Of a DNA stretch of 64,000 nt, positions 35,864-54,215 are shown piece by piece; within the stretch, counting starts at the first letter, position 1; the number at the start of each line of letters is the position of its first letter. The position numbers were made by a program, and so were the translations under genes. The notes below the pieces were generated by a model. The model saw only the letters and a program-made list of their open reading frames with translations, was not told where the DNA came from and did no database searches. The stretch comes from Planoprotostelium fungivorum (taxonomy: Eukaryota; Evosea; Variosea; Cavosteliida; Cavosteliaceae), in assembly GCA_003024175.1 (NCBI GenBank), contig MDYQ01000007.1, positions 310,001-374,000 of the forward strand, given 5' to 3'.

Positions 35864-37738
35864 ATGAGCTCATACGGTCCAGCTGACAATGAGGGTGATT
35901 ATCTGGGATCGAGATCACTTCCACCCTCCTCTGCACTCCCGAGTTCTATATCGGCAGTCGCCCTCATCGTCATTCCATTCATCTGGTTTCTCTACCGTCG
36001 CATGCACAGATATGAAGATTCACAGAAGAAATTCTGCAAGGAACATGGTAGATTCGGGGTATCTTTCACTGTCAACAACGTAACAAAGGCCGTCCAGCTG
36101 GAGCGTCGCGCTTTTCCGATCGTCTTGAACGACAGCTCCTGCTTTAACGTCATCAACGACGAGACCCTTGCAGAACTATCTATATCGAAGGAAGAGGCAA
36201 CCTTCTGGTCGAGTAGAGATGCCAATAGGATGGTGGTTTGTGGGGATTATCACGGGTCAGGTGAGATTAGCGCAGCTGCGGTGTAATGACTCCCGCAGGT
36301 ATATCGCTTCAGTACGATAAAGTTCTCTCGTCATCGAGCTCCCAAGTCAGTGTGGAGGAGCACAAAGTCGTCGAATTCAGTCAGTGGTACTTTTCCACCA
36401 ACACGAACAAGCTGAAATTGGAGGATGACGTCGTCAACAGCATGCTATTAGTCAGGGACGGTGCGACAGCTCGGGAGTTCTTGAACCGATACGGATCACA
36501 CATCATCGTGGGCCGTCAAAGAGTCGGACGTGAGCACCCTCGAAGATGATCACTCCATCCTCCATCGTCATCACACGCGCTGACTGATCGCTAATCAGTA
36601 TATCACGTGGGTAGCTCCTCCGAAGAGATTCACTCCACTTCAAACTCCACTGCCTATCAATTCGGACTAGGTATGACATGACTCTAACTTCTTCTCACCC
36701 TCACCAGAACTGTGCCTGAAATTCGTGTCCGTATTGTTCGGTGGTAGTTTCGGTCGCACCGACACGAGAGAGACCTTACACAAAACCTCTCGCACTCAGG
36801 GCAACGGATCCAGAGAAGCATTCGAGAGGGTGTGAAGACTGTTTGCACGATTTTAAGTCTCCTTACTCTAGCAGAGAAAATTCGACCCAACCCTGTGGAA
36901 GATCGTCGACAGCGACATCTACAACATGGTACCCATCTGGAAGATCAAGTCGGAGCCATCTGCACTGCTTGACGAGTGCCGATTGCAGCTGGAGAAGTAT
37001 TGGAGAAAGGCGTTGCCCCACTCTGAACACGATAAATCGTTGATCGCGACCGTTTACCACGACAGGCTGACTGATCACATCGGAACCTCTGAAGAGACGG
37101 GAGGGGTAGAGAGATCGAGGAGGGTCAGCCTGACCGGTCGCTATCTCAAACAGATCGAGGTGACGACGTGAATCACCGCATCTGACTCACAAGGAACAGT
37201 TCATCAACGAGCAGACCGACGGATTCCTCTTGTGTGGTGATGACAACCTTCCCGTCAATATCTCTATCAAAAACGAGAAGTGAGATTGATATTATCTTTA
37301 TGATAGACGTCTCGCAGATGGAGGATGACGTAGATTAGGTATCTCCGTGTGACCTGGACCGAAGATAAAAACGAATCCATCTGTGGTTTCAAGATCAGAA
37401 AATTGGAACCTCCTCTCGAAGAATTGACCAGCAGGTGATGATCGACTCGCGGAGACGCCGTGATCTGACCATGATGAAGCTATCAATATGGATCGAGTGG
37501 TGTGGGAGCATGGGTTTCTCAGAAGAAACACTTCTGCCACGTCCTCGAGCCCGATCGGACCTTGTCATCTCGTGAGCCCGTCGGTCACGATCTCAAGCTG
37601 CTCCTCAACACGAATGCGGAGAAGAACAAGGCTGAATGGAATGGTCACGTGGGGGTTGAGAAGACTGATGTCAGCAAGGCCTTCTCCCTCGTGTGGGACA
37701 AGAAGGACCCTGCCTCCTCCGCTTCTGGTCGTCGTTGA
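35864..37738 (+). CDS. Membrane-tethered MACPF/perforin-like protein
   Basis: Starts MSSYGPADNEGDYLGSRSL. A single hydrophobic helix near residues 28-48 (SAVALIVIPFIWFLYRRM) acts as signal-anchor. The following domain contains ARRAF-like strands, KLKLEDDVVNSMLLVRDGA, the MACPF-type signature FLNRYGSHIIVG, VSVLFGGSFGRTDTRETLH, IVDSDIYNMVPIWKI and RVSLTGRYLKQIE. The C-terminal part has beta-rich sequence (YLRVTWTEDKNESICGFKI, EWNGHVGVEKTDV). MACPF proteins oligomerise into membrane pores; a membrane-tethered form in an amoeba could act on engulfed prey or own membranes (inference). About eight introns of ~40-55 nt. The family call rests mainly on the YGSH motif and surrounding pattern. Confidence 0.55.
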
Positions 37739-38310: not shown

Positions 38311-38596
38311 GGACGAACGATGTGGTCTGTTTTTGTCAATCGTGGCACAAGTTTCGTGTCATCAAGATGCACCTCCTTTGTCCTTGGCGATTCTGCAGAA
38401 ATGCGAACATGTTGGACAAAATGTGACCCAAAACACCTTGCGATTCGTAAGTAAAAGACAGCGCATTCTTCTGAAACGCTCTGACCACTTATTCCGCTGA
38501 GTGAACAGAGTACAGCAAGAGATACAACGCAAAAGGAGCGGTGAGAGTCCGATGGTGTGAAAAAAGTGGCTCTGATGCAACTCAGCGACTTCACCA

Positions 38597-40410
38597 ATGA
38601 CGGTAACGCAGGAGCTCCTTCTCTGTATATTCTTTCTCGGCGCATTCCCTCTCGTCATCTTCCTATTGTATCGCCCTGCAAGGAAACACCAACCAGATGC
38701 AGCCCTCTTCCTGCCCTACGCTCGCCTGGCAGAGATCAGTTACAAGGATCTTAGAACACCAATCACGGGAAAAGGCTACGAATTTGAACACGTAGGTGAT
38801 CTACTCAATCGTCGCGTTCAGATCTGGAGGAAAGTCTTATTTTCAAAATCACCGGGCTCGCCCAAATACGTTGTCGTCATACGAGGTACCTCCACCATCC
38901 AAGACTTGTTCCAGGACCTACACCTCGTGGTTGGAGCGACCGGATTCCACACAAATGATCTCATACGCACGGTAGAGCAGATCGATCGGCAGCTTTCCAA
39001 TCAAGATTACGTAGCCGATCTCTCGAAGGAAAAGATCACATTCGTGGGTCACTCGCTGGGTGGCAGCATCGCGGAGAGCCTTTTGATCTGTCGTCATTTC
39101 AAGGGCATCAAGGGTTGCACGGCCATCAGTTTCGACTCCCCAGGACAACCGGACCACTTTCACAGCACGTATCAGACGGCAGAATGCGTCGAAGGCTCAT
39201 ACACTCTCAACTCTACACCCAACCTCGTCAACATGATGTTCAAGAGCCGCGCTCGATACTTTTACGTCTGTGGATCCGGTCAAGATTTCGCCATCCAGCA
39301 GGTGGTAGCCACTGTGGTCGCATGCGTGGGCCAGCCTGTTTTGAGTTTGGCTCGTACCTTCATGGGCCACAACGTTGCCGCTCACGGCATGGTCAACATC
39401 CGAGAACACGTCGAGAGGGGAGAGATTGCTCTTCACGACCAGGCCAGTTGGATCTTACTGTCTTCACAATGCCTCGGAGGGATCTCAAGGGCCGCCTCAC
39501 TGGTGTCTCCGCCGTTTCGTCACTTGTACAATCGCGTGTGGAAAGGAACCACTCTCCCTTTAGCTCCCACTATTCCAGAGGCGGCTTCAGTCGCTATCAG
39601 GACCGCAGTGGTTCCTCCTTCACCTTCTCTCGATAATGCGCCACGGACCACGTCCGATCTCCCTGAAGGGTTCGAGAACATTCAGCTCTTCCAGCAGTAT
39701 CACGTGACCGAGAGAGACTGGCAGAGACTGCAGGAATGGTGGAGGTCCACGGATGTCATCATTCCTTTCTTTGGTGCGAGTGGTTCCGGAAAATCTACGA
39801 CACTGAATCGACTCTGTCTGGAGGCCGGTGGAGTGGGTAACATACCCACCGGTGGTGGAGTGAATAATTCCACCTCCCCCGTACTCATTCCCTTCTTTGA
39901 TGACTGTGAGGTGAGACGACTGAAAAATTCCGACGGCGTACTCAAGTGTCACAGGGGAGAGTTTTTCTGTTGGATTGGCCCGGATTTGGCGCCGAACGAT
40001 TGGTGAGGAACGAGGCTTTCATTCGTGGCCTCCGTAAGACAATGGAGATGTTGTACGACAAGATCGTCTGTGCCGTGTACATTGCCTCCGAACTACCCTT
40101 GGACTGCATCACCGATGTGTACAAGATTCTGGTCAGAATGGAGTTGAAGGTGCTTCCGGTTCTGAACGCCAAGAACTGCCGTACACCGGGAGATTTGGAG
40201 GCCAGACTGAGGAATTGGAGAAGTGTCGTGAATGATATGACGGCGTACATTGCTGAGGGCAATGATGATCCAACGGGAGCTACGTGGAAGAGTTTCAGAG
40301 ATTTGTTTGGACAGCATGTGAACCTCAATCGACAGAGCAACGTAGCAGCTGCGCAGTTGAGAGGAAGGGAGAAGAAGTGGTGGTTTGCTAGGATGTGTAA
40401 CATCATATAA
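38597..40410 (+). CDS. Membrane-anchored lipase fused to a P-loop GTPase domain
   Basis: One large exon (38597 to about 39909), a 44-nt intron with donor GTGAGACG, and a last exon to TAA 40408; about 590 residues. Residues 5-25 (QELLLCIFFLGAFPLVIFLL) form an N-terminal membrane anchor. The alpha/beta-hydrolase resembles class-3 lipases: YVVVIRGTSTIQDLFQDL, the nucleophile elbow FVGHSLGGS, and SFDSPGQPDHF. After a Pro/Ser linker comes a G domain: Walker A FFGASGSGKSTTLNRLC (near 39774), and after the intron the G3-type motif FLLDWPGFGAE, then IVCAVYIASELPLD and VLPVLNAKNCRTPGD at the position of a degenerate G4. I know of no named family with this order. Activity of either half is inference from intact motifs. 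Confidence 0.75.
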
Positions 40411-40764
40411 AATTAAGGGTAGAAGTGTAAATTGTCACCTGCTGTACAGTTGGTGGGAGATGAGTGACAAGCTTTTGACTATGCATCACTAAAAAGGTCT
40501 GTACCACTCATCAATTTCACTTGTGTGAACAATCTTACACGGTTTGTAAACACAGATGTTGGAGACTTCCGTACCCAAGTTCATACGGTGTGTCAAAGAT
40601 GATCACGCACGGTGATGCTCAATGTTTGCGAGTCATCTTCGGCAGATATGAAAGTAAAAGCTCGATGTAGATGGCCACGTGGCAGTGAAGTCTGCTCACA
40701 TCATATCTCAGCACAACGATCCACTGAGGGGGGGAAGAGTGCGATGTCAGTGGAGTAAAAGATA
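40411..40764. other. Intergenic spacer before tRNA block
   Basis: No ORF. It contains the 3' end of the lipase-GTPase gene and the 3' flank of the degenerate tRNA-Ser copy, including a GCCACGTGGC palindrome at 40674-40683. Confidence 0.5.
40674..40683. repeat. GCCACGTGGC palindrome, 82 bp downstream of tRNA-Ser-like copy
   Basis: Perfect 10-bp palindrome containing CACGTG, followed on the tRNA-sense strand by ATCTACATCGAGC. The same block recurs at fixed distance from three other tRNA-Ser genes. Confidence 0.8.
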
Positions 40765-40846
40765 AGACAGCGGAGAGATTCGAACTCACGCATCCGAAGA
40801 TTACAGTCTTAACAGTCTGTAGCCATAACCACTCGTCCACGCTATC
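40765..40846 (-). pseudogene. Diverged tRNA-Ser-like gene (probable pseudogene), anticodon position reads GTT
   Basis: Aligns end to end with the tRNA-Ser(GCU) genes in this window. Acceptor stem GATAGCG/CGCTGTC and the T-loop TTCGAAT are kept. The anticodon arm differs: ACAGA-CTGTTAAG-ACTGT has one extra loop base, and GTT occupies the anticodon position. The variable arm changed on both sides (ACC/GGT to ATC/GAT), keeping pairing, but the T stem lost one pair (GTGAG/CTCTC). Mixed compensatory and damaging changes make function doubtful. Confidence 0.65.
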
Positions 40847-40933
40847 CTCGTAACTTGAGTATCACGCATCACAATGACGTCATTATGCAGATTGCGTAGA
40901 TAACACCTCGCGTTGCACGACACGTCATCACAA

Positions 40934-41020
40934 GCTCGATTAGCTCAGTTGGTTAGAGCACCGTGCTAATACACGTCCCACGACACGCGGGGGTCGCAGG
41001 TTCGATCCCTGCATTGAGCA
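40934..41020 (+). tRNA. tRNA-Ile(AAU) with 13-nt intron, copy 1
   Basis: Acceptor stem GCTCGAT/ATTGAGC, D arm TAGCTCAGTTGGTTAGAGCA (A box), T arm GCAGG-TTCGATC-CCTGC (B box). The anticodon stem CCGTG/CGCGG closes with a loop reading CTAATA then A; the extra 13 nt CACGTCCCACGAC after position 37 are a canonical-position tRNA intron. Anticodon AAT gives isoleucine. A T-run follows (CCTTTTA). Confidence 0.92.
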
Positions 41021-41278: not shown

Positions 41279-41359
41279 CGACAGCGGAGAGATTCGAACT
41301 CTCGCACCCGAAGGTAACAGATTAGCAGTCTGCCGCCTTAACCACTCGGCCACGCTATC
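41279..41359 (-). tRNA. tRNA-Ser(GCU)
   Basis: Acceptor GATAGCG/CGCTGTC, D arm GTGGCCGAGTGGTTAAGGC, anticodon arm GCAGA-CTGCTAA-TCTGT (anticodon GCT), long variable arm ACC-TTCG-GGT, T arm GAGAG-TTCGAAT-CTCTC. Identical in the mature region to the copies at 52249 and 53000. Convergent with tRNA-Ile copy 1. Confidence 0.93.
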
Positions 41360-41500: not shown

Positions 41501-42329
41501 ATGAGCAAGCCGACAGTCGTAGTGTGGGGAGGTGCCGGAGCTCTGGGGCAAGAGATTGTTTCAGAATTGAAGAAGGAGAACGCTACTGTTATCAGTGTCG
41601 ATCTCAGGGCCAACAGCGCAGCCGACCAGTCAGTTGTCATCAAATCGGATGGCACCAAAGAGGATGCTCAGTCAGTTCTCGACGCTGTCCAGAAAGTCGT
41701 CATCAATGGTAATTCGGTTTCATCATCATGTTCTAATTGGATCAGGTGTCGATGCTCTGATTTGTGTCGCTGGAGGATTCGAAATGGGGTCTTTCAATAG
41801 CCCAGACATCTTCGCCCAGGTGATGTCTAAAAGCTGTGAATGCAACTGACGTGGACGCAGTTAGAAAAGATGTACGCTTTTAATGTCAGAAGTTCCTTCG
41901 CTTCGTCTTGGGTGGCTTCTCACACCCTCAACGCGAATGGTCTGCTCGTTCTCACTGGTGCATGGGGTGCATTCAACAAGCCCACACCCTTCTTATCCGC
42001 ATACGGAGCCGCAAAGGCAGCGACTCACCATCTGACGACCTCTTTAGCCGCTTCCACCAGCGATTTCAAACAAGGAGGTGTGTTCATTGCAACATCATGA
42101 TCCTCTGACAAAGACAGTGAGTGTCGTCTGTATGCTTCCAGTCATGTTGGACACCCCCATGAACAGGAGCTCTGCTGGACCCAATGACAAGTTTGATGAT
42201 TGGACACCTCTGAATCACATCGCCAGTCTCATCTCAAAGTGGACCAAGGGACAAGAGAGACCCGCAAATGGCTCTTTCGTCAAGGTCACCACACAATCGG
42301 GAGAGACAAGCACGTCTCTCGTCCAATGA
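41501..42329 (+). CDS. qdpr: Dihydropteridine reductase (quinoid, SDR family)
   Basis: Starts MSKPTVVVWGGAGALGQEIV, a Rossmann glycine motif. Then GVDALICVAGGFEMGSFNS, the helix NVRSSFASSWVASHTL, GLLVLTGAWGAFNKPTPFL, the catalytic SAYGAAKAATHHL (YxxxK) and the QDPR-type segment LPVMLDTPMNR, KFDDWTPLNHIASLI, ERPANGSFVKVTT. The order and spacing match animal dihydropteridine reductase, an NAD(P)H enzyme that regenerates tetrahydrobiopterin in the cytosol. Three or four short introns, near 41710, 41819 and 42080. It is convergent with the GST gene, 38 bp between stops. Confidence 0.88.
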
Positions 42330-52248: not shown

Positions 52249-52329
52249 GATAGCGTGGCCGAGTGGTTAAGGCGGCAGACTGCTAATCTGTTACCTTCGG
52301 GTGCGAGAGTTCGAATCTCTCCGCTGTCG
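52249..52329 (+). tRNA. tRNA-Ser(GCU)
   Basis: Same cloverleaf as at 41279 (anticodon arm GCAGA-CTGCTAA-TCTGT, variable arm ACC-TTCG-GGT). A TTTT terminator follows at about 52333. The 3' flank to about 52540 is an inverted copy of 41050-41278. Confidence 0.93.
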
Positions 52330-52572: not shown

Positions 52573-52659
52573 TGCTCAATGCAGGGATCGAACCTGCGAC
52601 CCCCGCGTGTCGTGGGACGTGTATTAGGCCGGTGCTCTAACCAACTGAGCTAATCGAGC
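52573..52659 (-). tRNA. tRNA-Ile(AAU) variant with altered anticodon stem, copy 2
   Basis: Matches copies 1 and 3 including the 13-nt intron, except that the 5' anticodon stem reads CCGGC instead of CCGTG, leaving two mismatches against CGCGG. A and B boxes and the acceptor stem are intact. It may be transcribed yet fold or splice poorly. Confidence 0.75.
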
Positions 52660-52999: not shown

Positions 53000-53080
53000 G
53001 ATAGCGTGGCCGAGTGGTTAAGGCGGCAGACTGCTAATCTGTTACCTTCGGGTGCGAGAGTTCGAATCTCTCCGCTGTCG
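53000..53080 (+). tRNA. tRNA-Ser(GCU)
   Basis: Third intact copy with the same mature sequence as 41279 and 52249; TTTT follows at about 53084. Confidence 0.93.
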
Positions 53081-54128: not shown

Positions 54129-54215
54129 TGCTCAATGCAGGGATCGAACCTGCGACCCCCGCGTGTCGTGGGACGTGTATTAGCACGGTGCTCTAACCAA
54201 CTGAGCTAATCGAGC
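54129..54215 (-). tRNA. tRNA-Ile(AAU) with 13-nt intron, copy 3
   Basis: Identical in structure to copy 1 (stem CCGTG/CGCGG, intron CACGTCCCACGAC). The 3' flank (CCAGCGGATGAAAGAAGATT on the plus strand) is shared with copy 2. Confidence 0.92.

What the first reader, a model, noticed from the sequence alone, without database searches (positions are those of the whole stretch)
38597..40410. Fusion of a membrane-anchored lipase with a P-loop GTPase
A single gene joins an N-terminal membrane helix, a class-3-type lipase with intact GHSLGGS elbow, and a G domain with GASGSGKST and DWPGFG motifs. Coupling nucleotide binding to lipolysis in one polypeptide would be a switchable lipase, and I cannot name a described family with this order. 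The lipase half is one long exon; the G domain is crossed by a 44-nt intron in phase.
Basis: partly seen in the sequence, partly recalled or inferred. Interest (0 to 1): 0.75.

Follow-up and report, generated by a model that had tools for sequence, protein, structure and literature searches.

The report
Membrane lipase fused to nucleotide-binding domain
One eukaryotic gene joins a membrane-anchored fat-cutting enzyme to a GTPase-like nucleotide-binding domain, which might act as a built-in on/off switch, but no relative of the pair was found here and nothing has been tested at the bench.

Summary
Window 38597-40410 (+) encodes a predicted 589-residue protein in two exons: hydrophobic N-terminal anchor, class 3 lipase, proline-containing linker, P-loop domain. 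Lipase and P-loop lie in one uninterrupted 438-codon exon whose last in-frame ATG is at 39389, inside the lipase half, so their fusion does not depend on the 44-nt intron (39911-39954), which is needed only to reach DWPGFG. The lipase half narrowly passes Pfam Lipase_3; S153 is clear by motif, D230 and H263 are candidates from a weak alignment. The 'GTPase' label is only partly earned: G1 and G3 are present, but the G4 position reads NAKN, no G5 was recognised, and no G-domain model reaches its cut-off. The gene was the only match to itself in its 36.9 Mb genome. No relative of the fusion was found in viral, prokaryotic, plasmid or phage collections; eukaryotic proteomes could not be searched. 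Most likely mechanism: a membrane lipase gated by a nucleotide-dependent switch, working like, but not a member of, fungal lipase-NACHT/NB-ARC proteins. Both AlphaFold runs failed; fold and gating are inferred.

The parts
38597..39910 (+). exon 1 (438 codons): anchor, lipase, linker, first part of the P-loop domain
   Evidence: open frame 38576-40006; ATG at 38597
38615..38671 (+). N-terminal hydrophobic segment (residues 7-25), followed by basic RPARKH
   Evidence: hydropathy; helix 5-28, in the only stretch of the model with pLDDT of 70 or more
38870..39490 (+). class 3 lipase domain (Lipase_3 match residues 92-159; end at about residue 298 is my estimate)
   Evidence: Pfam, alignment with own-genome lipases
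39047..39067 (+). GHSLGGS nucleophile elbow, Ser153
39284..39286 (+). candidate catalytic Asp230 (GQDFAIQ)
   Evidence: faces an Asp in 1 of 7 aligned lipases, L006; inference
39383..39385 (+). candidate catalytic His263 (AAHGM)
   Evidence: faces HSM in 2 of 7 aligned lipases (L006, L030) and HSL in L005; inference
39773..39799 (+). G1 / Walker A, GASGSGKST (residues 393-401)
39869..39880 (+). candidate G2 region STSP (residues 425-428)
   Evidence: position between G1 and G3, next to a T in the weak EngB alignment; inference
39911..39954 (+). 44-nt GT-AG intron, phase 0 (predicted)
   Evidence: frame analysis; neighbouring predicted introns of 37 and 41 nt
39955..40410 (+). exon 2 and stop: rest of the P-loop domain
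39973..39990 (+). G3 / Walker B-like DWPGFG (residues 445-450)
   Evidence: faces DLPGYG of EngB 7szs (E 0.056)
40165..40176 (+). NAKN at the G4 position (residues 509-512), departs from N/TKxD
   Evidence: faces TKAD of EngB 7szs (E 0.056)

Best explanation
A membrane-anchored class 3 lipase with its own nucleotide-dependent switch. Shown from sequence: one open exon joins anchor, lipase and P-loop, and a short predicted intron leads to the G3 motif. Inferred: the single N-terminal helix followed by basic residues puts lipase and P-loop domain on the cytosolic face; nucleotide binding and turnover in the C-terminal domain moves or dimerises the chain and opens or closes access to the Ser-Asp-His site, releasing fatty acid from membrane lipid on a signal.
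For: Lipase and P-loop share an uninterrupted 438-codon exon; its in-frame ATGs are at 38597, 39233, 39236, 39362 and 39389 only, all upstream of the P-loop and within the anchor-lipase half, so the P-loop domain has no start of its own in that exon. Lipase_3 above cut-off. RGT faces RGT in 5 of 7 aligned lipases of the genome (L030 has RGS, L011 does not cover it), the elbow is shared by 7 of 7 (they were picked by that motif), H263 and D230 face a likely catalytic residue in some. P-loop and DxPG in canonical order. Lipase/esterase or patatin domains joined to NTPase switches are described in fungal NLRs (PMC4986451, passages).
Against: No relative of the fusion in any collection searched. 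G4 reads NAKN and no G5 was recognised. RsgA_GTPase and MMR_HSR1 lie below their cut-offs, and whole-genome scans with MMR_HSR1 and AIG1 at E 0.1 did not list this gene (its G domain is split by the intron). The best PDB match, E 0.056, is not significant; unrelated plasma kallikrein follows at 0.28. AlphaFold gave mean pLDDT 34.1 and 32.1. Codon scoring ranked antisense frames above the sense frame over both pieces of the P-loop domain (its reference was six long frames not verified as genes). No transcript evidence.
Confidence: 0.45

Rival explanations
1. The fusion is real and the lipase is active, but the P-loop domain is a scaffold: it positions or oligomerises the lipase at a membrane, as dynamin- or GIMAP-like domains do, without gating catalysis.
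For: NAKN at G4 and no recognisable G5; anchor present.
Against: G1 and G3 are intact, which suggests that nucleotide binding is kept.
Confidence: 0.3
2. The gene is a recent lineage-specific chimera with no selected coupling between its halves.
For: No second copy and no relative of the fusion found.
Against: Both halves keep core motifs in an open frame; eukaryotic relatives could not be searched, so absence says little.
Confidence: 0.15
3. Two genes or a mis-joined model: lipase and P-loop protein are separate transcripts.
For: The junction at 39911-39954 is predicted, one of 24 frame-keeping GT-AG pairs; no cDNA.
Against: Lipase and P-loop lie in one exon, without an in-frame ATG after 39389.
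Confidence: 0.1

Closest known systems
Fungal NLR proteins with an N-terminal sesB-like (lipase/esterase) or patatin domain and NACHT or NB-ARC (PMC4986451, passages)
   Same: A lipid-cleaving effector N-terminal to an NTPase domain in one chain
   Different: There the NTPase is NACHT or NB-ARC, usually with C-terminal repeats; here it is a TRAFAC-like P-loop domain with DWPGFG, no repeat family matched, plus a membrane anchor
Class 3 lipases (Pfam PF01764) and Mbeg1-like proteins (PF11187)
   Same: RGT, GHSLGG elbow, plausible Ser-Asp-His triad; both models at or just above cut-off
   Different: Among the 30 lipase loci of this genome that were fetched (of 45 matches), 2 had a P-loop motif within about 1.5 kb, both read as separate neighbouring genes
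EngB/YihA and RsgA-type GTPases (TRAFAC)
   Same: G1 and DxPG G3; canonical order
   Different: NAKN at G4, G5 not recognised, scores below curated cut-offs; no G4 seen upstream of G1, unlike permuted RsgA (permutation recalled)
DO-GTPase conflict systems of prokaryotes (PMC7159879, 12 of 49 places seen)
   Same: A TRAFAC GTPase, sometimes with TM segments, proposed as a switch for effectors
   Different: Multi-gene systems with GAP1; the passages seen mention no fused lipase (the text has one 'phospholipase' that I did not see)

Membership tests
Class 3 lipase (PF01764) | score above curated cut-off | tested here: met
   23.6 and 26.2 bits against 22; only profile positions 1-77 of 140. DUF676 (19.7 of 20.3) and PGAP1 (19.2 of 24.3) come close below theirs
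Class 3 lipase (PF01764) | GxSxG elbow and RGT motif | tested here: met
   GHSLGGS 151-157; RGT facing RGT in 5 of 7 lipases
Class 3 lipase (PF01764) | Ser-Asp-His triad | tested here: inconclusive
   S153 by motif; D230 supported by 1 of 7 and H263 by 3 of 7 aligned lipases, in a poor alignment
Class 3 lipase (PF01764) | alpha/beta hydrolase fold | tested here: inconclusive
   AlphaFold models unusable
TRAFAC GTPase | G1 GxxxxGK[ST] | tested here: met
   GASGSGKST
TRAFAC GTPase | G2 threonine | tested here: inconclusive
   T426 in STSP is a candidate only
TRAFAC GTPase | G3 DxxG | tested here: met
   DWPG
TRAFAC GTPase | G4 [NT]KxD | tested here: not met
   NAKN faces TKAD of EngB in a weak alignment, E 0.056
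TRAFAC GTPase | family model above curated cut-off | tested here: not met
   RsgA_GTPase 21.6 of 30 bits, MMR_HSR1 18.5 of 21.9
NLR/STAND with lipase effector | NACHT or NB-ARC domain | tested here: not met
   neither among the matches; nSTAND_NTPase5 at E 0.1, 12.9 of 34 bits
NLR/STAND with lipase effector | C-terminal repeats (WD40, ANK, TPR) | tested here: not met
   no repeat family among the matches

The most novel reading that the evidence does not exclude
A self-switching lipase: a single membrane-anchored chain in which a P-loop domain of unusual nucleotide specificity gates a class 3 lipase, a one-protein counterpart to NLR-lipase effectors in a unicellular-type eukaryote.
Probability: 0.25. 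Interest if true: 0.75.

Novelty: new variant of a known kind. Interest (0 to 1): 0.42.

Why it matters
GTPases usually control lipases from outside, as separate proteins (recalled). A built-in switch would give a simple, testable model of nucleotide-gated lipolysis at a membrane, and would extend the effector-plus-NTPase design described in fungal NLRs (PMC4986451) to another P-loop class.

Tried and rejected
Relatives of the fusion. Own genome, residues 1-330 and the 235-residue P-loop half at E 0.01: only the gene itself; two candidates were scored in each. Viral contigs: exon 1 (6 pattern matches, 0 relatives) and P-loop half (1 match, 0 relatives). Genome contigs: exon 1 (28 matches, 0 relatives) and P-loop half (60 matches, 0 relatives). 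These scans find close relatives only. Phages: no match at E 0.01 in 50,697 records. Plasmids: 19 of 72,556 records, all Campylobacter; the 10 rows listed cover 16-17% of the query, in the lipase core, at E 8e-3 to 1e-2, and 8 of the 10 are annotated Mbeg1-like (9 records not listed).

A second fusion in the genome. One search gave 45 Lipase_3 matches (this gene among them) and one search gave 39 MMR_HSR1 matches (this gene not among them); several are pieces of one gene. Loci were fetched for 30 and 20 of them, each about 3.1-3.4 kb, and scanned for P-loop and elbow motifs; 15 and 19 matches were not read. Besides this gene's own loci, two held both motifs: L008, with a Rab-like P-loop upstream of the lipase, and L011, with a P-loop on the other strand; I read both as separate neighbouring genes (gene names recalled). 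An AIG1 match on C154 lies about 6.7 kb from the Lipase_3 match on that contig, on the other strand. Mbeg1-like matches only this gene (21.4 bits, 1 candidate).

Other leads. RsgA-type permutation was considered because RsgA_GTPase scored best; I set it aside since I saw no N/TKxD upstream of the P-loop and the candidate G4 follows G3. The best hit of the P-loop half among 51 own-genome loci was L042, E 0.30, which looks like an MTG1/YlqF-type GTPase (recalled from its sequence). PADLOC: mad8 E 1.6e-4 and mad3 E 0.02 for the P-loop half, nothing for the lipase half. NCBIfam: nothing near a cut-off. PDB by sequence: best E 0.17 full length, 0.056 P-loop half, 0.36 lipase half. AlphaFold: exon 1 and the lipase core, both unusable. 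The spliced protein was not handed to structure prediction, since its stated rule asks for letters the DNA gives unchanged.

Papers. Six searches on the architecture, listing 20 of 52, 7 of 7, 10 of 12, 15 of 24, 12 of 189 and 12 of 86 papers: no listed title or abstract start describes a class 3 lipase-GTPase fusion, and the terms Lipase_3, lipase domain and class 3 lipase occur in none of the papers listed. Two searches followed a recalled guess that the genome could be a protostelid amoeba and settled nothing. Only PMC7159879 and PMC4986451 were opened, passages only. This is not proof that the fusion is undescribed.

Full report
What is there. The window lies in a genome of 36,859,091 bases in 471 contigs. 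The gene runs from ATG 38597 to TAA 40408-40410. Exon 1 (38597-39910) is open for 438 codons and carries the anchor, the lipase, a proline-containing linker and the P-loop; exon 2 (39955-40407) carries DWPGFG and the rest. Read without splicing, the frame ends at a stop at 40004-40006, after GHSLGGS and GASGSGKST but without DWPGFG. The central claim, lipase plus P-loop in one polypeptide, therefore rests on a continuous frame and not on the intron. The in-frame ATGs of exon 1 are at 38597, 39233, 39236, 39362 and 39389, the last at residue 265 in the lipase half.

The intron. A 44-nt GT-AG intron in phase 0 joins the frames. In the SDR-like gene next door, two predicted introns of 37 and 41 nt (41709-41745, 41820-41860) restore a protein that matches adh_short at E 1.2e-15, so introns of this length are plausible here. 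Among GT-AG pairs with donors at 39805-39989 and lengths of 29-160 nt, 24 keep the frame and all 24 retain WPGFG; a 41-nt pair at 39906-39946 is the nearest competitor.

The lipase half. Lipase_3 is met (23.6 and 26.2 bits against 22), Mbeg1-like is just over its cut-off (21.2 and 21.9 against 21.1), and DUF676, PGAP1 and general alpha/beta hydrolase models fall below theirs. Nine sequences were sought for an alignment, this one and eight lipase loci; L017 gave none, so seven were aligned. The elbow is shared by 7 of 7, which were picked by it; RGT by 5 of 7 (L030 has RGS, L011 does not cover it); H263 faces a His in L006, L030 and L005; D230 faces an Asp in L006 only. Outside these motifs the alignment is poor. 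PDB sequence searches gave nothing significant (best E 0.17 and 0.36). Besides the anchor, residues 231-249 are moderately hydrophobic (mean 1.63), within the lipase half.

The P-loop half. The best models are RsgA_GTPase (E 2.1e-4) and MMR_HSR1 (E 2.3e-3), both under their cut-offs and covering the G1-to-G3 part. The best PDB match is EngB 7szs at E 0.056, not significant in itself; G1 and G3 coincide and NAKN faces TKAD. The genome-wide MMR_HSR1 and AIG1 scans did not list this gene at E 0.1. The G1-G3 pattern appears in 0 of 300,000 shuffles. Codon scoring favoured the sense frame for the lipase and linker but put antisense frames above it for both pieces of the P-loop domain; its reference was six long frames that were not verified as genes. 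I read this as a probable P-loop domain of TRAFAC type whose guanine specificity is not supported.

Context. Searches of the genome with either half returned only the gene itself. No second lipase-P-loop fusion was seen among the 50 loci read, out of 84 matches. Searches found no relative; one search found lipase-core similarity in 19 Campylobacter plasmids. No eukaryotic collection was available, so absence of relatives says little.

Mechanism. I commit to a membrane-anchored lipase gated by a nucleotide-dependent switch. Shown: the joined reading frame and the motifs. Inferred: cytosolic orientation, nucleotide binding, lipase activity, coupling. The design works like fungal NLRs with sesB-like or patatin effectors (PMC4986451, passages), but the protein fails the NACHT/NB-ARC and repeat criteria and is not filed there. 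Two AlphaFold runs without an alignment failed (mean pLDDT 34.1 and 32.1), so the fold is untested.

Scores. The checking round moved the triad from met to inconclusive and added adverse results for the P-loop half; the odds were already set with NAKN, sub-threshold scores and failed models in view, and I leave them unchanged.

Noticed in passing
window 40764-40847 (-) and 41279-41359 (-): A tRNA-Ser(GCT) at 41279-41359 and a degraded-looking copy at 40764-40847 (Rfam 32.0 bits, cut-off 29) sit in 82-86% direct repeats about 514 bases apart.
   Followed up: partly
window 40934-41020, 52249-52329, 52573-52659, 53000-53080, 54129-54215: Further tRNA genes, including two more tRNA-Ser(GCT) and a tRNA-Leu(TAA); those at 40934 and 54129 got no clear anticodon from ARAGORN, perhaps because of an intron.
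   Followed up: no
window 36271-36546 (+): A frame with NRYGSHIIVG, reminiscent of MACPF proteins (recalled); no Pfam match at E 0.01.
   Followed up: partly
window 41501 onward (+): SDR-family gene, resembling dihydropteridine reductase (name recalled), with predicted introns of 37 and 41 nt.
   Followed up: partly
L030 1390-3268 (-): A Lipase_3 frame next to a frame resembling bacterial hemagglutinin-type proteins (recalled): contamination or horizontal transfer.
   Followed up: no
window 39945-40412 (-) and 39623-40018 (-): Antisense open frames of 156 and 132 codons over the P-loop half; codon scoring did not disfavour antisense there.
   Followed up: no
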